From Bdellovibrionales bacterium RIFOXYC1_FULL_37_79 (GTDB taxonomy: Bacteria > Bdellovibrionota > Bacteriovoracia > Bacteriovoracales > Bacteriovoracaceae), in the NCBI GenBank assembly GCA_001770015.1, contig MEQB01000025.1, positions 1-47,531 on the forward strand: a DNA stretch of 47,531 bases, written 5' to 3'. The number at the start of each line of letters is the position of its first letter. The stretch's first letter is position 1. The position numbers were made by a program, and so were the translations under genes. Shown here piece after piece: positions 7,531 through 46,944 of the stretch. Under the pieces are notes generated by a model. The model was not told the origin of the DNA and searched no databases. It saw only the letters and a list, made by a program, of their open reading frames with translations.

Positions 7531-10500
7531 TTATCTTAATACACTTAATTCTTCTTCTATACTTGCCCGGTCTGGTGCATCCTTACGTAAATCCAGATAA
7601 TTTTGAAAATATTCAACCGCCAGATCTCCCTGACCTATTTGCTTATATATATATCCGAGTTGTTTATTAGCTTCCGGATCCGCTTTATCAATATTCCAAA
7701 CCCGGAGATAGTACTCTCTAGCAATATCATATTGTCCTTGTCGATATTTAAGTTGTCCAAGATTTTTAAGCGCATCAAACGAATCACGATTTCTTGAAAT
7801 TGCATTTTCAAAAAATTTGGTGCTATCATTTAACATTTTTGCTTTTATACTCATATCATTTTCTTGATTTGCCATTTCCTGCATAGCCATCCCTTGAATC
7901 AAAAACCCAAACTCACTATTGGGAAAATAAAGAGATTCACTAGCACCGCTAGTCAATGCTCCCTGAAAATCACCCTGATTAAATAGTAATCTCGCTTTAT
8001 AATAATTGGCCATCTTGTATGTCGGCATCCTTTCCAAGACATCGTCAATAATCGCATGCCCTTCGGGAAATCTTTTTAATTCTAAATAGGTGCTGGCCAG
8101 ATTAACCTTATTATCTATATCACCAGGTTCTAGTATTGATATCTTTTTTGCATACTCTACAACACTTTTCAAATTGCCATCCAACTCCGCTGTCTTTAAC
8201 AAAAATTTATATAAAGATGGATCTTCGCTGGTTCCCAAAGAAGTGATTTTATTTTTAGTTTTTTCAAATAGCTTATTTTGACCACTTCTATAATAAAAAA
8301 TTGCAATTTGGCTAAGCAGTTTTACGTCTTCCCCCCTGGATCTAATTTCATTCCTTAAAAAACCAATAGCGACATCTGCTCCATCTGACTCATACAACAG
8401 TTCCGAATAAAAACATATATACTCCAAATTATCCGGCTGAAGAGTTAAGGCGGTACTGATTCTTCTTTTACTTTCACTTACTTGACCAAACTGTAAAAAA
8501 AGTTTAGCTAAATAATAATAATCATCATCATTAAGATTATGAATATTTAATCCTTTTTTTATGTATCTTATTCCAATCGATATTTTGCCATGCTTAACGT
8601 ATGCCCTTCCAAGCAAAGAATAAAAGGCAGGATCATTTGACACCCTTGATTCCCTGGAAAGAATAGATAGTTTCTGTAATGCCTTATCTATCAAATTAGC
8701 TTCGACGTAGGCGGCAACTAGATTGATATTGACCGTAGTATTAGTAGGATAAATCCTGGCAAGTTTTTCTAAAATTTCAATGGCCTGGGTAAAATATCCT
8801 TTTTTAAGTTGAATATGCGCAAGCCATATATGAGAAGGTATATAAGTGGAACTGGCGTCCGCCGCTTCTACCGCGTATTTAAAAGCGTTTTCCCATTGAT
8901 TGGCAGTAGCCATTTTTTGAGAACTTTTCATCAGATCTTTAATTTTACTTTCCAGTATTAAAAATTTTTCAAACTCACCACCCTTAAGTTCTAATTCCGC
9001 TAGTTTTGATCTTAACTCATCATTTTCTAAAAGCTTTAAAGATTTATTAAAATATTTCGCAGCCAAATCAAATTGTTTTTCAGAAATTATGGAAATACCC
9101 TTATACTCAAGATATTTTGCATAGTATTCTGGACAATTTTCAAGTTTTAATAATTCAAGAGCCTGCAAATTATGTTTAACTTTATTAATATCCTTATTTC
9201 TTAATGCATATTCAGTAAATTTTAAAATGAGCCAGACTGAATTTTTATAAAACTGGCTAGCTTTAAATAAAATTTTTTCTGCATCTTCAAATCTTTGATT
9301 AAACTCTAAATATTCCGCACAAAAAATATACATTTCCAACGGGCCACGGGATTGTTTTAAAAGATATTGAAAAGTCTCTTCGGCATCATTACGATCCGTA
9401 ACTGGATCAATCCCCACCATGCCGGCCTTCATTAAAATATGTAATCGATACGCCAGCAGTTTATTTGATAATTGTTTCTTTTTCACCCCGGAAGTGGCCA
9501 TTAAAACATATTTTTCAATAATATATGCGGCAGTTTTAAACTTTCCAATTTTTAAGTAAAAAATACCAGCCGCCAAGGCCGCTTTTTCTTCAGTAATGGT
9601 TTTAGTATTTGCAATTTGAAGCAAACGGAAAATAATATTGCTATCTTCACTTTTATTTTTTGAATTATTTAAGATTTCTGAATAAATAATTGCCAGCCAG
9701 TAAATAGCAGGAGATAAAACTTCCTTTATAATCACATTATCCTTTTGATCTGTGTTTGGATTATTTTCTATCACTTCCTGATTTTTTTTCAAAGTGATCT
9801 TTTTTTGATCCCGGAACATATGCTTGAGTGATGTTTCAAAATATTTGGCTGCTTTAATTTTACTAACATAGGTATTTTTAGCATACTCTTTTTTTCCAAG
9901 TTCATATGCTTCAATCGCCTTGGGTTTATCCAAGTACGTATGTACGACGGGAAAGCTAATAACTGGATAAATTACTTTTATATTTCCACTAGAATTTTCC
10001 TCTGGAAAAAGTAATACATAAAAAACCACAATAAAGGCGAATGCCGTTATCCATTTTGTCTTTTTTCCTTTTGGAATTTTTTTAATGATGGTTTGAATTT
10101 TAGTCAATTCTTTTAAGGATTCCTGATCCTCAACATCTTCTTCCAGAAGTAAAATCTTTTTTTCAAACTCACTTTCTGCCTCTTTTAGTTCTTTTTTCAG
10201 AGACGGTAAAATACTTTTTAAACTTACCACCTCTGTTTTGTCATAAACACTTGCTTGATTTTTTAAGGGAAGTTCCTCTTTTTCTTTTAAGTGTTCATCC
10301 AGAATTAAAGGATCTTTTTCATCAGCAAAGGGCACCTGGAGTTGGGCAACTTTAGTTTTATCTGTAATTGTTATTTTAGGATTGATATCTCTTCTTAAAA
10401 CCGTTTTATCAAGAGACGCTTGCCCATTATTGACCTGTTTTATCCTGGTTGATCCACCTTCTTCATCTTTTTTAAATTTAAATTCTTGAAAAAGTTTTTT

Positions 10501-10806
10501 AGTTTTATCAATCTCTGGAAGAGATTTTTCCAAAACCTGGGTAACATCATCTAGTATCTTTTTTAAAATCTCTTTTTCTTTTTTTGAAATTAGGTTTTCC
10601 TCAATAATTTTACCATCAATAATTTCTTCAATTAATGTTAACAACTCTGGGTAAGATGTTATGTTACCCCAATCACCTTCATTAACTTTGTGATAATGTT
10701 CATTCCCGCAAATATGACCATAAATATATAAAACGCCAATTTGCTTTTTTGTCAACGGACCGACAATTTGGCCATTATCAAATTTAATTTTATATTCATT
10801 TTTCAT
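7531..10806 (-). CDS. GYF-domain, single-pass membrane TPR protein
   Basis: This 1091-residue protein is built in three parts. Residues 1-60 look like a GYF_2-type module (GQIVGPL...GDWGNI). Residues 61-250 form a charged, probably cytoplasmic linker with repeated short motifs at 117-122 (GGSTRI), 133-137 (DKTVL), 149-153 (DKTKV) and 189-193 (DKTEV). One membrane helix (about 252-268) follows. The remaining 800 residues are helical TPR repeats, presumably in the periplasm. The ATG at 10806 overlaps the nuoN stop by 4 bases, so it is translationally coupled to the complex-I-like genes. The layout recalls scaffold proteins of delta-proteobacterial motility machines such as GltJ/GltI, but this is only a likeness of architecture. 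Its function is unknown. Confidence 0.75.
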   Translation of the reverse strand: MKNEYKIKFDNGQIVGPLTKKQIGVLYIYGHICGNEHYHKVNEGDWGNITSYPELLTLIEEIIDGKIIEENLISKKEKEILKKILDDVTQVLEKSLPEIDKTKKLFQEFKFKKDEEGGSTRIKQVNNGQASLDKTVLRRDINPKITITDKTKVAQLQVPFADEKDPLILDEHLKEKEELPLKNQASVYDKTEVVSLKSILPSLKKELKEAESEFEKKILLLEEDVEDQESLKELTKIQTIIKKIPKGKKTKWITAFAFIVVFYVLLFPEENSSGNIKVIYPVISFPVVHTYLDKPKAIEAYELGKKEYAKNTYVSKIKAAKYFETSLKHMFRDQKKITLKKNQEVIENNPNTDQKDNVIIKEVLSPAIYWLAIIYSEILNNSKNKSEDSNIIFRLLQIANTKTITEEKAALAAGIFYLKIGKFKTAAYIIEKYVLMATSGVKKKQLSNKLLAYRLHILMKAGMVGIDPVTDRNDAEETFQYLLKQSRGPLEMYIFCAEYLEFNQRFEDAEKILFKASQFYKNSVWLILKFTEYALRNKDINKVKHNLQALELLKLENCPEYYAKYLEYKGISIISEKQFDLAAKYFNKSLKLLENDELRSKLAELELKGGEFEKFLILESKIKDLMKSSQKMATANQWENAFKYAVEAADASSTYIPSHIWLAHIQLKKGYFTQAIEILEKLARIYPTNTTVNINLVAAYVEANLIDKALQKLSILSRESRVSNDPAFYSLLGRAYVKHGKISIGIRYIKKGLNIHNLNDDDYYYLAKLFLQFGQVSESKRRISTALTLQPDNLEYICFYSELLYESDGADVAIGFLRNEIRSRGEDVKLLSQIAIFYYRSGQNKLFEKTKNKITSLGTSEDPSLYKFLLKTAELDGNLKSVVEYAKKISILEPGDIDNKVNLASTYLELKRFPEGHAIIDDVLERMPTYKMANYYKARLLFNQGDFQGALTSGASESLYFPNSEFGFLIQGMAMQEMANQENDMSIKAKMLNDSTKFFENAISRNRDSFDALKNLGQLKYRQGQYDIAREYYLRVWNIDKADPEANKQLGYIYKQIGQGDLAVEYFQNYLDLRKDAPDRASIEEELSVLR

Positions 10807-13595: not shown

Positions 13596-15449
13596 TCACC
13601 GCTTTATAAAAATTGCCAACAACATAAATAGGAGCATCCACAAATATACACCAAGCTGTTGTCTTGACGTGTGAAGTTCAAAAATTGTAATCAAGCCCAA
13701 TTGCCTATCAATTTCCTTGCCTACTGTTGTAACAATCGCACCGTTTTGTTTTCTTATCAATACTCCCGCACTTATTAACGTCTTGACCATGATTAAAAAT
13801 AGTGATTTGACTTTTTTAAAAAATAAAGTATAAAAATTCTTGAGAAATTCCCTTATCGGTTTAGTTTGTTGTACCAATTTCATGTCTAAACCTATTTCTT
13901 CTTTTTTAGCAAAATAAACAATATAAGCTCCCATTGATAGCAACAGAAAAAATAAACTCCATAATATCATAAACCAGACATTAACAGGGGTGACCATATG
14001 ATTTGTAAAATATAACTTATCATACCAAGATAAAAAAAGATCTTTTCTAATAAACCATAAATCAAAGGGCAGATTTAATAAAACAACAGTACCTACCAAT
14101 AAAACATAAATAACCAGAATGATTTTATACGATAAACTCTCCCTTGGAATATTTTTATCTCTTCTACTGGTCATTTGAGTAAAAAACATCCTGGCAAAAA
14201 ACCAGACCAGGATAGACTGAATGCAAAGTGTATAAAAAAAACCAATAAACATCATTCCATTTGAATGCATCTGATTCCACATAATACCCGTAATGGCCTT
14301 AATTATTCCACATCCAGGTGGTAAAAACATCACTAAAAATGATATCATCAAATATGTGGAATGCCAGGGGCCTATTGCAACGTCGCCTGAATAGTCTTGG
14401 ACTGTTTGTCCGGTCTTGTTTTCAACATACTTTAAATGACCATATAATCCTGTAAGCATCACTAAAGATACTAATATTAAATAAAATGACATTCCAACAG
14501 ATTGAACAATCAAGGCAATAATAACCATTAAAAAAAATCCCGCTACATAACTTCCAAGGATTTTATTTAAATGCTTTTCTTGTATCAGCGTCCAACCAAC
14601 ATACGTAACAAAAGGAAACATTCCAAAAATTACTATTGTATTTAACCCTGCCGCCATATCAATTATAAAAACAAAACGGACAATAATATATGTTAATACC
14701 AAAAAACCCACATTTATTTCCGTAAAGAATCTTTCAATAGTTTTATTTTTTGAAAATATTAAAACATCCAATATCTGGATAACTGATTTTAATAACAACA
14801 TTGCTACTATCCAAAATCCTTCATTGATTTCTAAAAACATTTCATGGGATATAAGCGTAAATCGGCCTAAAATTATATTTTTTGGATCTATTTTGCTTAA
14901 CATCATAACCATTAAAATAAAAATCACCACGTCTAGTGCCCGCTGAAAAATAAAAATCATAGCACCTTTATTTTGAGTCACCTCCTGAGGTTTTAAAATA
15001 TCATCAATTAAAAAACCCAACGACAATAGGGTCATAGAAAAAAGCAGAACCAGTATATTTCCCGCCAAAATAACAACTGTCATCGCAGACAGACCTGCCG
15101 GAAACCATTTAAAAGATGTATTATTTTTATAAAAAAGATTAACCAGGATAGGATGTAGAAAAACACAAATGTTAGCAAAAATATAAAACAAAACAATTCT
15201 ATCTATTTTAAAACAAATAGGTATTTTAAAATTACCAATCTCAACTTCAAAAAAACTGGTCAATAATACCGGGTCGTAATTCAAAGCGCGTACCGCCAAG
15301 ATAATCCAAGCAGCAAGACTTGCCAGGATTAAGATCAATACAAAAATTGTATTGTGCTCTTTTTTAGCGCCATTAAAAATTGAAAGTTCACCAATATAAT
15401 ATAAAAGGGGGGTAAACGTTGCAATGGAAATTAAAAAACTAAACATCAC
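13596..15449 (-). CDS. nuoL: NuoL-like membrane subunit, divergent
   Basis: The 617-residue protein has NuoL's length, many membrane helices and a long C-terminal lateral section ending in a final membrane helix (about 598-615). K221 in LLLKSVIQ matches the TM7 lysine. The TM5 WELVGLCSYLLIGF motif has become SMTLLSLGFLIDD, so its glutamate is missing. The [27 protein letters not shown] signature is lost after its first residues. Its start overlaps the end of nuoK by 4 bp. It is more divergent than normal species variation would explain. Confidence 0.75.
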   Translation of the reverse strand: MMFSFLISIATFTPLLYYIGELSIFNGAKKEHNTIFVLILILASLAAWIILAVRALNYDPVLLTSFFEVEIGNFKIPICFKIDRIVLFYIFANICVFLHPILVNLFYKNNTSFKWFPAGLSAMTVVILAGNILVLLFSMTLLSLGFLIDDILKPQEVTQNKGAMIFIFQRALDVVIFILMVMMLSKIDPKNIILGRFTLISHEMFLEINEGFWIVAMLLLKSVIQILDVLIFSKNKTIERFFTEINVGFLVLTYIIVRFVFIIDMAAGLNTIVIFGMFPFVTYVGWTLIQEKHLNKILGSYVAGFFLMVIIALIVQSVGMSFYLILVSLVMLTGLYGHLKYVENKTGQTVQDYSGDVAIGPWHSTYLMISFLVMFLPPGCGIIKAITGIMWNQMHSNGMMFIGFFYTLCIQSILVWFFARMFFTQMTSRRDKNIPRESLSYKIILVIYVLLVGTVVLLNLPFDLWFIRKDLFLSWYDKLYFTNHMVTPVNVWFMILWSLFFLLLSMGAYIVYFAKKEEIGLDMKLVQQTKPIREFLKNFYTLFFKKVKSLFLIMVKTLISAGVLIRKQNGAIVTTVGKEIDRQLGLITIFELHTSRQQLGVYLWMLLFMLLAIFIKR

Positions 15450-38485: not shown

Positions 38486-38494
38486 TGTGTATAA
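38486..38494 (-). promoter_or_regulatory. DnaA box, perfect match
   Basis: TTATACACA on the minus strand fits the TTATNCACA consensus. It lies next to the AT-rich stretch, the expected position for the box nearest the unwinding element. Confidence 0.75.
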
Positions 38495-38771
38495 GTTAAT
38501 AACTAAAAAACATAATAATTTCAAATGTTTTTTTCATACACAAAAGATGTTTATATTAATAATTATTTTCAAGAAAGGCAAGTTGTTCGGAGATTCTAAG
38601 TTATTTATTCCTAAATCTAGTTATTATACTCAATTTCTATACCCGTTTTCCCCATCATTTATATCAGGTTTGTGAAAGGATAGTTTTATTGAAAAAAATA
38701 TTTTTATCCACCGAATTATACAAAAATGTGTATGGAAAAATCGGTGAATTTAAACTTATTCAGGAATCGAG

Positions 38772-38780
38772 TTATTCACA
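38772..38780 (+). promoter_or_regulatory. DnaA box, perfect match
   Basis: TTATTCACA fits the TTATNCACA consensus. A one-mismatch box on the other strand (38783-38791) follows 2 bp later, giving a paired arrangement. Confidence 0.75.
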
Positions 38781-38871
38781 TTTGTGGAAAACTATTCAAA
38801 GAGTATATAAAATCAATAATATAGAGATACTAATTATTAACACAGAAAATTTATCATGTGGAAAAAATAGG

Positions 38872-42917: not shown

Positions 42918-44438
42918 GTGAATGCTTTATTTGATAATAAAATTATAATTGCTTGTAGCAGTGGTAACCAATCTAATTGTGCTATCACGGTTATTAGAAT
43001 TAGTGGAAAACAAATTTTGGATGAGTGTCAAAAATGGTTTTCTAAAAAATTAAATTCTATTCAACCAAGAAAAATGTATAGATCTCAAATTATAGATAAT
43101 CATCAATGTATTGATGATATAATGCTTTGTTTTTTTGCTAATCCTAATAGTTATACCGGCGAAAACGTTCTTGAACTTTATGTGCATGGTAATATTTTAA
43201 ATGTAAAAAGAATTTTGGCTCTTTTTTGTAAGTCGGAAAAAATTCGTTTTGCCCAACCAGGAGAATTCACTTATCGAGCATTAAAAAATAAAAAAATTAG
43301 TCTTACTCAAGCTGAGGGATTGGATCTTTTATTAAATGCTAATAATGGGATTGCTTTTAAGCAAGGTTTAGATATTTTGCAAGGTAATTTGCATAAAAAA
43401 TTTTTATCCTTATATAAAAGTTTTCGAAATTTAAAGGTTACTTTTGAATTACAAATCGATTTTTTGGAAGATGTTGGAGAGAAATCAGCGAATCAACAAC
43501 TTGATTTCGCTTTAAAAGATTTTGAGTCTAAAATAACCGACTTATATATAAAAACTTTAACCAATAAATCTCATTTATTAACACCAACGGTGGTTGTGGT
43601 AGGTCAAACTAATGCAGGAAAAAGCTCTTTTTTTAATAATATTCTTGGATTAAATCGATCAATTGTTTCAAAAATTAAAGGGACTACGAGAGATTACGTT
43701 AGCGATTATATTACTATTGAAGAAAACCTATTTCAGTTTATCGATACTGCTGGGATAAGAAATTCATATGAAGAAATTGAAATGGAAGGAATTAAAAGAT
43801 CAAAAGAAATAATGAAAAATGCTTTTTTTTGTGTGATGGTCTTGAACCCATTTGAAACTGATTACGATGAATTAAAGTCTCTGGATTTAAATAAAATTGA
43901 TATGTTTATTGTTAGTCATGCAGACTGTAAAAATTCATATGCTGAATGTAAAAAACTTGAAAAAATTTTAAATCAAAAAGTTTATTTTACCAATTTGAAT
44001 TATGATAATGAAAATTGTCAAAGTGGTCCTATAGGACCAGATAAAACTAGTGGTCCTATAGGACCAGATAAAACTAGTGGTCCTATAGGACCAGACAAAA
44101 TTAGTGGTTCTATAGGACCAGATAAAATTAGTGGTCCTATAGGACCAGATATTATAAATGGTTGTTTTTTAAAGGAAGAATTTTATAGAAATGTTCATAG
44201 TAAATTTTTAAAATTTTCTGAAACTGATACTCTTTTTATTGAAAGGCAACGTACTTATATTAACAAAACGTATAATAAATATCTAAAATTTAAAGAATTA
44301 TTGAAATGCAATACGGATATTGCTATCTCTATAAGCGAATTGTCTATATTAGAAAACGAAATTAGTCAATTAATTGGAATTATTTCTACTGATGATTTAT
44401 TAGGTGATATTTTTAAAAACTTTTGTATAGGTAAATAA
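42918..44438 (+). CDS. mnmE: tRNA modification GTPase MnmE with an in-frame repeat insertion
   Basis: This 506-residue GTPase works with MnmG on wobble uridine 34 (5-carboxymethylaminomethyl). The N-terminal folate domain (1-118) has SYTGENVLEL and AQPGEFTYRA. The G domain has G1 GQTNAGKSS (229-237), GTTRD (255-259) and DTAGI (276-280). The G4 position after strand MFIV reads SHAD (333-336), not NKxD. Residues 369-411 are five 9-residue repeats, SGPIGPDK(T/I), absent from normal MnmE. The end FCIGK keeps the catalytic Cys. The start is a GTG at 42918, 3 bp after yidC. It joins mnmG without any gap. Confidence 0.93.
   Translation: MNALFDNKIIIACSSGNQSNCAITVIRISGKQILDECQKWFSKKLNSIQPRKMYRSQIIDNHQCIDDIMLCFFANPNSYTGENVLELYVHGNILNVKRILALFCKSEKIRFAQPGEFTYRALKNKKISLTQAEGLDLLLNANNGIAFKQGLDILQGNLHKKFLSLYKSFRNLKVTFELQIDFLEDVGEKSANQQLDFALKDFESKITDLYIKTLTNKSHLLTPTVVVVGQTNAGKSSFFNNILGLNRSIVSKIKGTTRDYVSDYITIEENLFQFIDTAGIRNSYEEIEMEGIKRSKEIMKNAFFCVMVLNPFETDYDELKSLDLNKIDMFIVSHADCKNSYAECKKLEKILNQKVYFTNLNYDNENCQSGPIGPDKTSGPIGPDKTSGPIGPDKISGSIGPDKISGPIGPDIINGCFLKEEFYRNVHSKFLKFSETDTLFIERQRTYINKTYNKYLKFKELLKCNTDIAISISELSILENEISQLIGIISTDDLLGDIFKNFCIGK
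44022..44150 (+). repeat. In-frame palindromic tandem repeat inside mnmE
   Basis: Four full 27-bp units (44022, 44049, 44076 and 44103) and a partial fifth (44130-44150) each carry the perfect 14-bp palindrome GGTCCTATAGGACC, except unit 4, which has one change. With one extra base on each side the palindrome is 16 bp. The unit is nine codons, so the frame is kept. It sits in the loop after the last strand of the MnmE G domain. Confidence 0.95.
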
Positions 44439-46295
44439 ATGGAGAAATCCACATTTGATATTGTTGTAGTAGGTGCTGGTCATGCTGGAATTGAAGCCGC
44501 ATGGATGGTTGGTAACATTGGGTTAAAGGTTGCTTTGATTAATTTGCCAGGTGTTCAAATTGCTGAAACTCCGTGTAATCCGGCGATTGGAGGTGTTGGC
44601 AAGGGCCAATTAGTTAGAGAGATTGATGCCATGGGTGGTTTAATGGGTAAAATCACAGATTTATCCGCTATCCATTATAAGGTTTTAAATGAAAGTAAAG
44701 GTTATGCAGTACAATCTACCAGGGTTCAAGTAGACAAAGAGCGGTATTCAGTATTCGCTGAAAAATTTTTGAGAGAAAATAAAAATATAAGTATTATCAG
44801 CGCAAAAGTTGTTAAAATAAATTATATTGCAGCAGACTGTTTTGAAATTAGATTAGAAAACAATGACTTAATTTCTTCTAAGGCAGCCATTGTTTGTACA
44901 GGCACTTTTCTTAATGGGAAACTACATATTGGCGCTGAACAAATTCCAGGAGGGGTGTTTGGTTGTGATCGATCTGATTCATTGATTAGTATTTGCCCTG
45001 TTATTGAGGCAAGTAAACGCTTTAAAACTGGAACTCCTGCTAGAATTTGTAAAAGTAGTATTAATTGGAGCAAATTAGAAAAACAAAATTCCGAACCAAC
45101 CGCGCAAAATTTTCATATTTTGCATAATGATTTTGAAAGATTTAACCAACAGATAACGTGTTATTTAACTAGAACTAATCAAAGAACTATGGAAATAATT
45201 CGTAGAAATAGAAATATTGCCCCGCTTTATAATGGCCAAATAAAAGGTATTGGGCCACGATATTGTCCCAGTATTGAGGATAAAGCTTTTCGTTATCAAG
45301 ATAGAAATGAACATCATATTTTTCTTGAAATGGAAGGCCATGAACTTGACAGTGTTTACCCCAATGGAATTTCAACTAGCCTACCAAAAGAAGTTCAAAA
45401 TGAATTCATTCATTCAATTGTTGGATTGGAAGATGCTCAAATTTTAAAATATGGTTATGCTGTTGAATATGATGTTGTTGATCCAACGGTTCTAAATTTT
45501 GGTTTAGGACATAAAGATTTTCACGGATTGTATTTTGCTGGACAAATTAATGGAACTTCAGGTTACGAGGAAGCGGCAGCGCAGGGCGTTATCTCTGGAA
45601 TTAATGCTTCTTTAAAAATTTTAAATAAGGCCCCCATCATTTTTTCTAGAAATGATTGTTATCTGGGAGTATTGATCGAAGATATTATTACCAATGATAG
45701 GGATGAACCTTATAGATTGTTCACCGCTAGGGCCGAAAATAGATTATTTATTAGAGAAGATAATACGATTAATCGTATGCACTGTTATCGAGAGAAACTG
45801 GGTCTTCATCAAGATATTGATCAATTCCAAAATAACTATATTAATTATTTTAATTTGTTAGAAGAATTTGCTGAAAGTTATTTTTTTAAATCTAATGATT
45901 TAATTATGCACAAATTCAACAATAATGGTTATGGAGTTATTGATGCAAGATTATCCTTGTCTGAATTATTAAAACGAGCACATTTAGACCCGGTTAAGAC
46001 ATTATCACAAGAAATAAGTGATCAATTAGTTAAAATTGATTATAAAATTATTAAATCCGTAGCTATTTCTCAGAAATATAGAGGCTATATAACTAAGGCT
46101 AATAATGAATTTGAAAACTTAAATAAACTTGATGCACTTAAAATTAATTGGAAATTAATAGCCGAAAATGAGCGTATTTCTAATGAGTGTAGACAAAGAA
46201 TTATAAAAACCAAACCTGAAAGTTTTTCTCAACTTAGAAGAATTAATGGAATCAGACCCGCAACCATTGCCTATGTTGCTACAATGTATAATTAA
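44439..46295 (+). CDS. mnmG: tRNA uridine 5-carboxymethylaminomethyl modification enzyme MnmG
   Basis: The 618-residue FAD enzyme is MnmE's partner. The FAD motif is VVGAGHAGIEAAW (about 10-22). TPCNPAIGGVGKGQLVREIDAMGG, the catalytic-Cys region and GTPARI follow, then the C-terminal RAENRLFIREDN. Full length. It starts directly after the mnmE stop and its stop overlaps the rsmG start (TAATG). Confidence 0.98.
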   Translation: MEKSTFDIVVVGAGHAGIEAAWMVGNIGLKVALINLPGVQIAETPCNPAIGGVGKGQLVREIDAMGGLMGKITDLSAIHYKVLNESKGYAVQSTRVQVDKERYSVFAEKFLRENKNISIISAKVVKINYIAADCFEIRLENNDLISSKAAIVCTGTFLNGKLHIGAEQIPGGVFGCDRSDSLISICPVIEASKRFKTGTPARICKSSINWSKLEKQNSEPTAQNFHILHNDFERFNQQITCYLTRTNQRTMEIIRRNRNIAPLYNGQIKGIGPRYCPSIEDKAFRYQDRNEHHIFLEMEGHELDSVYPNGISTSLPKEVQNEFIHSIVGLEDAQILKYGYAVEYDVVDPTVLNFGLGHKDFHGLYFAGQINGTSGYEEAAAQGVISGINASLKILNKAPIIFSRNDCYLGVLIEDIITNDRDEPYRLFTARAENRLFIREDNTINRMHCYREKLGLHQDIDQFQNNYINYFNLLEEFAESYFFKSNDLIMHKFNNNGYGVIDARLSLSELLKRAHLDPVKTLSQEISDQLVKIDYKIIKSVAISQKYRGYITKANNEFENLNKLDALKINWKLIAENERISNECRQRIIKTKPESFSQLRRINGIRPATIAYVATMYN

Positions 46296-46927
46296 TGGAA
46301 TTTAGCAAACAATTACATAAATTAATTTTTGAAGATTTTAAGGGATTAAATTTAACAAATTATTCGAGTTTTAATGATTTTCAATTATTGCAAATTTCTG
46401 ACTCTATTAAACCCCTGGAAATCAGTTCTATATTCAAAAAAGCCATTGAGGATAAAGGAATTGTAATTGATGTCGGTTTTGGTGGCGGATTTCCTATTCT
46501 ACCCTTAGCTAATTTTTTTCCCGATATTCAATTTTTAGGCATTGAAGCAAAGAGAAAGAAAGTAGATGCGGTTAATATAATAAAAAATAAATTAAAATTA
46601 GATAATGTTCATTTGATTCACCAGCGAATTGAAAATCTTATTATCGACATGGAAGTGGTTATTGTGGTTAAGGCAGTTTCAGACATCAAGGATTTATTAA
46701 ATAAAATTATCACAATAAAAAATATTAATGTTTTTTTTTATAAGGGGCCCAATATTGATGAAAAAGAAAATTTTGAGGATGTGTTAATTTCCTGGGAAAT
46801 AATTGAAAATAAAAAATATTCGTTGGAAAATTTTCAACGATCACTTATTGGTTTTTCTAATAAAAATGTTCCATGTGGAACTTTTTTAAAAAAGGATAAA
46901 ATAATTTTGTCGAAAATTTTAAAATAA
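46295..46927 (+). CDS. rsmG: 16S rRNA (guanine527-N7)-methyltransferase RsmG
   Basis: The 210-residue SAM enzyme has the motif VIDVGFGGGFPILPLA (about 57-72) and GIEAKRKKVDAV (about 80-91). The typical YKGP segment is replaced by FYKGPNIDEKE. The ATG shares its A with the mnmG stop codon. A parS-like site is embedded in its last codons (residues 192-197, VPCGTF). Confidence 0.92.
   Translation: MEFSKQLHKLIFEDFKGLNLTNYSSFNDFQLLQISDSIKPLEISSIFKKAIEDKGIVIDVGFGGGFPILPLANFFPDIQFLGIEAKRKKVDAVNIIKNKLKLDNVHLIHQRIENLIIDMEVVIVVKAVSDIKDLLNKIITIKNINVFFYKGPNIDEKENFEDVLISWEIIENKKYSLENFQRSLIGFSNKNVPCGTFLKKDKIILSKILK
46867..46882. promoter_or_regulatory. parS-like site 1, within rsmG
   Basis: TGTTCCATGTGGAACT matches the bacterial parS consensus TGTTCCACGTGGAACA at 14 of 16 positions. 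It lies within the 3' end of rsmG. It would nucleate ParB. Confidence 0.8.
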
Positions 46928-46928
46928 A

Positions 46929-46944
46929 TGTTCCATGTGGAACT
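46929..46944. promoter_or_regulatory. parS-like site 2, between rsmG and parA
   Basis: This site is identical to the site at 46867-46882 and lies 62 bp downstream of it. A 9-bp hairpin (46939-46960, GGAACTTTT / AAAAGTTCC) overlaps its right half. Confidence 0.8.

What the first reader, a model, noticed from the sequence alone, without database searches (positions are those of the whole stretch)
44022..44150. Palindromic 27-bp repeat array inserted in frame into MnmE
Five units built on the 14-bp palindrome GGTCCTATAGGACC encode SGPIGPDK(T/I) repeats within the G domain of an essential-type tRNA-modifying GTPase. The array is nearly uniform, so it is recent or kept uniform by recombination. 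In-frame palindromic insertions are known in Rickettsia (RPE elements), but this tandem collagen-like GPIGP form is different. The palindrome may have a DNA role (protein site or mobile repeat) that the protein tolerates. Copy number may vary between strains.
Basis: seen in the sequence. Interest (0 to 1): 0.8.

Follow-up and report, generated by a model that had tools for sequence, protein, structure and literature searches.

The report
Second centromere-like array inside mnmE
A run of identical palindromes inside a tRNA-modification gene is probably not a protein feature but the landing site (a second, unusual centromere) for an extra chromosome-partition protein found only in this bacterial family, beside the replication origin.

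Summary
The array is real: five 27-bp units, each holding a 16-bp palindrome TGGTYCTATAGGACCA, in frame in mnmE (44022-44150). It is a conserved DNA element, not a collagen-like protein motif. In relatives whose MnmE is only about 40-48% identical, the same palindrome (TGGTYCTATAGRACCA) recurs 1-13 times in the same disordered MnmE loop. It also occurs intergenically after parB, antisense to dnaA, and in all three reading frames. Wobble bases are fixed while the neighbouring amino acid varies freely. In the two single-contig chromosomes all copies lie within 13 kb and 2.4 kb. The ordinary parS (TGTTCCACGTGGAACA) sits among them; the new motif has the same length and differs at base 3 and the central four bases. 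I predicted, and then found, a second ParB (ParB2) in the same family: 69/72 family genomes, 0/169 others of the phylum. It is always encoded behind its own parA, and its recognition helix has lost the parS-reading residues. Best reading: a second ParABS-like system on one chromosome, whose parS2 sites are tolerated as coding sequence in mnmE. ParB2 binding to the motif is inferred, not shown. No description of this was found in the open-access library searched.

The parts
42918..44438 (+). mnmE (tRNA-modifying GTPase) carrying the array in frame
   Evidence: ORF; TrmE_N, MMR_HSR1 and MnmE_helical hits; MnmE equivalog models; GTPase motifs and C-terminal FCIGK intact
44022..44150 (+). 27-bp tandem array, 5 units, encoding SGPIGPDK(T/I)-type repeats
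44024..44039 (.). putative parS2 site 1, TGGTCCTATAGGACCA
44051..44066 (.). putative parS2 site 2, TGGTCCTATAGGACCA
44078..44093 (.). putative parS2 site 3, TGGTCCTATAGGACCA
44105..44120 (.). putative parS2 site 4, TGGTTCTATAGGACCA
44132..44147 (.). putative parS2 site 5, TGGTCCTATAGGACCA
46867..46882 (.). ordinary parS-like site (parS1), TGTTCCATGTGGAACT
   Evidence: in relatives this region holds TGTTCCACGTGGAACA
46929..46944 (.). ordinary parS-like site (parS1), TGTTCCATGTGGAACT
44439..46295 (+). mnmG (gidA), next gene of the origin-proximal cluster
46295..46927 (+). rsmG (gidB); in relatives parA1-parB1-bacA follow
   Evidence: own parB1 is at the start of contig C65
38872..40446 (-). dnaA; cluster of DnaA-box-like sequences at 38486-38865 places the likely oriC about 5 kb from the array

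Best explanation
The array is a cluster of DNA-binding sites, here called parS2 (TGGTYCTATAGRACCA). It belongs to a second ParABS-like chromosome-partition system conserved in this bacterial family beside the ordinary ParABS. Proposed mechanism: the ParB2 dimer (own genome G000:C23:52525-53346, operon parA2-parB2) recognises the palindrome with its altered recognition helix, closes as a CTP-dependent clamp, and slides onto flanking origin DNA. Its partner ParA2 then positions or tethers the origin region, alongside ParB1 on ordinary parS. The sites sit in mnmE because the palindrome can be read there as GPIGP, GSIGP or GPIEP in a disordered surface loop, and tandem duplication there adds sites cheaply. 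Shown by sequence: DNA-level conservation of the motif, its confinement to the origin region, interleaving with parS1, restriction of motif and ParB2 to the same family, the parA2-parB2 operon, and loss of parS-reading residues in ParB2. Inferred: that ParB2 binds this motif, that it is a CTP clamp, and that the output is origin positioning or segregation.
For: DNA-level selection: over 116 sites in 27 genomes, Gly1 is GGT in 109/110 while Gly4 is never GGT; Pro2 is mostly CCT while Pro5 is CCA or CCG. One site per genome gives Fisher P of 4e-15 and 4e-13. Ile is ATA in 86/93 against 20% ATA in the rest of mnmE. The preceding codon ends in T in 110/116 whatever the residue. The motif also occurs intergenically (22 sites, mostly between parB1 and bacA), antisense to dnaA, and in frames 1 and 2 (RSYRTK, AVLWDQ). 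In G005 the MnmE loop carries it in another frame, reading PVLSGH. Location: all 9 sites of G003 (3.44-Mb main contig) lie in 13 kb and all 3 of G137 (single 4.15-Mb contig) in 2.4 kb; reversed-pattern controls gave 0. Ordinary parS TGTTCCACGTGGAACA lies among them and equals the proven B. bacteriovorus parS (PMC10547168). Prediction tested: a second ParB was found. It is present in 69/72 family genomes and 0/169 other genomes of the phylum; the motif is in 68/72 against 3/169 with one copy each. parA2 lies directly upstream of parB2 in 22/22 loci. The contact residues Q162, K171, R173 and N178 of ParB (PMC7383237) are kept in ParB1 but are E, I, K and R in ParB2 (positions matched by hand). 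ParB2 keeps GERRxRA and ENxxR and its model best matches Noc and ParB structures.
Against: No binding datum links ParB2 to the motif. One well-assembled genome (G026, 99% complete, 240 contigs) has the motif but no detectable ParB2. Genus g5 keeps ParB2 but has only a few, mostly degenerate sites. The motif is not near parA2-parB2 (0 sites in those loci), unlike most ParABS loci. One isolated copy in the own genome lies near flagellin genes. PF17762 (HTH_ParB) does not hit ParB2, and the ParB2 model has a modest pTM of 0.43.
Confidence: 0.72

Rival explanations
1. The palindromes are auxiliary sites for ParB1 or for another origin protein such as an SMC loader, pole anchor or replication regulator, and parA2-parB2 serves something else.
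For: The motif resembles parS in length and half-site layout and lies next to parS1 and parA1-parB1. G026 has the motif without a detectable ParB2.
Against: ParB1 keeps canonical parS-contacting residues and canonical parS is present, so a second motif has no obvious ParB1 rationale. Outgroup genomes of the phylum have ParB but almost no motif. Only ParB2, among proteins looked at, shares the family restriction.
Confidence: 0.2
2. The motif is a Noc-like occlusion site: ParB2 works as a nucleoid occlusion factor that brings origin DNA to the membrane rather than partitioning it.
For: The best PDB sequence and fold matches of ParB2 are Noc (7ol9, 7nfu). The motif differs from parS much as NBS does (PMC7383237).
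Against: ParB2 always has a ParA partner, whereas Noc acts alone. Sites are confined to about 13 kb, not dispersed along the chromosome. The curated Noc cut-off is far from met (94 against 315 bits). The ParB2 N-terminus is basic and was not tested for membrane binding.
Confidence: 0.12
3. A protein-level repeat: a collagen-like or disordered loop selected for GPIGP-type peptides in MnmE.
For: The pentapeptide is common in MnmE of the family and sits in a disordered loop.
Against: Fixed synonymous bases, intergenic and out-of-frame copies, confinement to the origin. A true collagen-like gene of the same genome uses other codons.
Confidence: 0.02
4. A selfish or mobile palindromic repeat (RPE, REP or HIP1 type) inserted by chance into mnmE.
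For: Palindromic, in frame, tandemly repeated.
Against: Only 1-17 perfect core copies per genome, essentially all at one place, in the same loop and gaps across dozens of genera.
Confidence: 0.02

Closest known systems
Chromosomal ParABS with parS (B. bacteriovorus: PMC10547168; ParB/parS structure: PMC7383237)
   Same: 16-bp palindromic sites clustered by oriC; ParA-ParB operon; ParB_N domain with GERR and EN..R boxes; family parS1 identical to B. bacteriovorus parS
   Different: A second, paralogous pair on the same chromosome; sites TGGTYCTATAGRACCA instead of TGTTYCACGTGRAACA; sites unlinked to parA2-parB2 and mostly inside mnmE; recognition helix rewritten
Noc / NBS (nucleoid occlusion; PMC8429893, PMC7383237)
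   Same: A ParB paralogue with shifted DNA specificity; best fold and sequence match of ParB2
   Different: Noc has no ParA partner and dispersed sites; NBS changes parS bases 1 and 6 of the half-site, whereas here base 3 of 16 and the central four bases change
RacA/ram origin-anchoring sites of Bacillus subtilis (from memory, not tested)
   Same: Short palindromes near the origin bound by a dedicated protein
   Different: Unrelated protein family and other sequence
Rickettsia palindromic elements (RPE; from memory)
   Same: Palindromic DNA read in frame inside genes
   Different: RPEs are dispersed and longer; these sites stay at one locus and occur outside genes too

Membership tests
ParABS partition system | ParA-type ATPase with deviant Walker A motif | tested here: met
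   parA2: NNKGGVGKT in all 22 loci; AAA_31, CbiA and ParA-family models
ParABS partition system | ParB with N-terminal CTP-binding domain (GERRxRA, ENxxR) | tested here: met
   PF02195 hit; motif residues invariant in 19 sequences; CTP binding itself not assayed
ParABS partition system | parA-parB operon | tested here: met
   parA2 ends within about 125 bp of, or overlaps, the parB2 start in 22/22 loci
ParABS partition system | Palindromic centromere sites clustered near the origin | tested here: met
ParABS partition system | That ParB binds those sites | not testable with these tools
   Only co-restriction to the family and helix divergence support it
ParABS partition system | Standard parS-contacting residues in the HTH | tested here: not met
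   ParB2 has Q162E, K171I, R173K, N178R (against residues listed in PMC7383237); fits a changed site, not canonical parS
Noc | Score above the curated nucleoid_noc model | tested here: not met
   92-94 bits against cut-off 315
Noc | No ParA partner; sites dispersed over the chromosome | tested here: not met
Noc | Membrane-targeting amphipathic N-terminus | not tested
   ParB2 starts MAKxFAPRVSKKxRK; no assay or helix analysis done
Rickettsia palindromic element / dispersed repeat | Many copies scattered over the genome | tested here: not met

The most novel reading that the evidence does not exclude
One bacterial chromosome carries two complete, non-interchangeable ParABS centromere systems with interleaved sites at the same origin. 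The second centromere is largely written inside the coding sequence of a conserved housekeeping enzyme, so that centromere growth by tandem duplication creates protein repeats. This is conserved across a whole family.
Probability: 0.6. Interest if true: 0.9.

Novelty: new variant of a known kind. Interest (0 to 1): 0.8.

Why it matters
If true, this is a natural case of two orthogonal centromere systems on one chromosome, with a previously unlisted ParB specificity (TGGTYCTATAGRACCA). It would bear on how ParB paralogues change specificity and on how some relatives of Bdellovibrio organise their origin. It could also offer a new orthogonal ParB-parS pair for DNA labelling. It further shows how a centromere can be embedded in, and reshape, an enzyme's coding sequence.

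Tried and rejected
Genome-wide dispersed repeat: rejected, because copies cluster at the origin. Collagen-like peptide: rejected by codon and frame evidence; the only genuine collagen-like gene hit (C12) is unrelated. First idea that the motif replaces parS: rejected, because ordinary parS TGTTCCACGTGGAACA is also present. Autoregulation of parB2 by the motif: no site in the parB2 loci. ParB2 as a recent duplicate of ParB1: the tree separates the two groups and ParB1 sits with the outgroup ParBs. Naming the organism by its relative's 1973-bp contig in the plasmid collection gave no hit. Searches for prior reports of Bacteriovorax or Halobacteriovorax with parS or ParB, two ParABS systems, or non-canonical parS found none describing this; only open-access papers were searched.

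Full report
Observation. The window holds five 27-bp units at 44022-44150, in frame in mnmE (42918-44438), each with the palindrome GGTCCTATAGGACC (one copy GGTTCTATAGGACC). Extended by one base on each side it is a 16-bp palindrome, TGGTYCTATAGGACCA. In MnmE the repeats fall in a loop between the strand at 355-357 and the helix at 416-434, modelled as disordered (pLDDT about 30). MnmE is otherwise an ordinary family member. The gene order is dnaA, yidC, mnmE, mnmG, rsmG, and DnaA-box-like sequences cluster next to dnaA, so the array is about 5 kb from the likely origin.

Relatives. Among 58 other genomes, all have a match to MnmE. In most of the 29 same-family relatives whose MnmE was read, the same loop carries the motif, even though these proteins are only about 40-48% identical to the window's (73-74% in the same genus). 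I counted 116 sites in 27 genomes, 1-13 per MnmE ORF. The encoded peptide varies (GPIGP, GSIGP, GPIEP, GSIEP, GPMGA, APIEP) and so do the linkers. The DNA hardly varies: TGGTYCTATAGRACCA, with a second half-site form TGCCCCYA.

The motif is a DNA element. The same amino acid uses different, mutually complementary codons by position: Gly1 GGT 109/110, Gly4 GGA or GGG only; Pro2 mostly CCT, Pro5 CCA or CCG. Taking one site per genome, Fisher P is 4e-15 and 4e-13. Ile is ATA in 86/93 against 20% in the rest of mnmE. The codon before the motif ends in T in 110/116 cases although it encodes more than ten different residues. Motif copies also lie in intergenic DNA (22 sites, mostly between parB and the bactofilin gene), antisense to dnaA, and in mnmE, mnmG and rnpA in other frames. 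In G005, which seemed to lack the motif, the MnmE loop has it in another frame, reading PVLSGH, plus two more degenerate sites nearby. A true collagen-like gene in the own genome uses different codons.

Location. With the degenerate 16-mer, all nine sites of G003 (main contig 3.44 Mb) lie within 13 kb around mnmE and parB, and all three of G137 (single 4.15-Mb contig) within 2.4 kb. Reversed-pattern controls gave none in these two. Ordinary parS sites TGTTCCACGTGGAACA lie in the mnmE-mnmG and rsmG-parA parts of the same region. That sequence is the functional parS of B. bacteriovorus, whose parA-parB-bactofilin order is also the same (PMC10547168). The new motif has parS length and differs at base 3/14 and the central four bases. 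This is the kind of change that separates the Noc site from parS (PMC7383237).

Prediction and test. A parS-like but different palindrome suggested a second ParB with altered specificity. A search for the ParB family then found one. With an alignment of ParB2, it is present in 69 of 72 family genomes and in none of 169 other genomes of the phylum. The motif is in 68 of 72 against 3 of 169 with one copy each. parB2 is directly preceded by its own parA2 in 22 of 22 loci, roughly 300-400 kb from mnmE where both lie on one contig (my arithmetic). ParB2 forms a group separate from ParB1. Residues that contact parS in ParB (Q162, G170, K171, S172, R173, N178; PMC7383237) are mostly kept in ParB1. 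ParB2 has E, G, I, S, K, R at these positions, in a helix LGISKSEVHR that is nearly invariant across the family. ParB2 keeps the CTP-pocket boxes and its model best matches Noc and ParB structures.

Interpretation. The best reading is a second ParABS-like system with its own centromere sites (parS2), laid over the ordinary centromere at the origin and mostly housed in a disordered loop of mnmE. Shown: DNA-level conservation, origin confinement, family restriction of both motif and ParB2, operon structure, loss of parS contacts. Inferred: binding of ParB2 to the motif, clamp action, and a role in origin positioning. Exceptions: G026 has the motif but no ParB2 was found (draft of 240 contigs), and genus g5 has weak sites. 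The step from co-occurrence to binding is why confidence is 0.72.

Taxonomy. From memory, a relative with a chromosome of about 3.436 Mb and a 1973-bp plasmid (G003; sizes) fits Halobacteriovorax marinus, which would place the family near Bacteriovoracaceae. This was not confirmed.

Noticed in passing
L005:2378-2391 (G000:C54:4377-4390): A single perfect GGTCCTATAGGACC lies between two flagellin genes, next to a terminator-like inverted repeat, away from the mnmE contig. It may be chance or an isolated extra site.
   Followed up: partly
L167:2328-4178 (G000:C12): A 616-aa secreted-looking collagen-like protein with long Gly-X-Y repeats (GPVGPQG..., KGDTGAVGA).
   Followed up: partly
L157:1504-2406 (G003:C1) and similar hits: A third ParB-like group of about 300-360 aa, matching only the N-terminal ParB domain, recurs in many family genomes; function unknown.
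   Followed up: no
L156:3916-4800 (G019:C53): An additional ParB of 294 aa in G019, on a long branch in the tree, possibly plasmid- or element-borne.
   Followed up: no
L043 and L049 mnmE: Near-perfect 24-bp arrays (8x SGPIEPEK-type and 6x SGPMGAEK-type) show independent recent tandem expansions of the same site in different genera, the latter built on the less symmetric GGTCCTATGGGGGC form.
   Followed up: partly
window 7531-10806: A 1091-aa TPR-repeat protein near a 617-aa ORF at 13596-15449 without any Pfam match.
   Followed up: no
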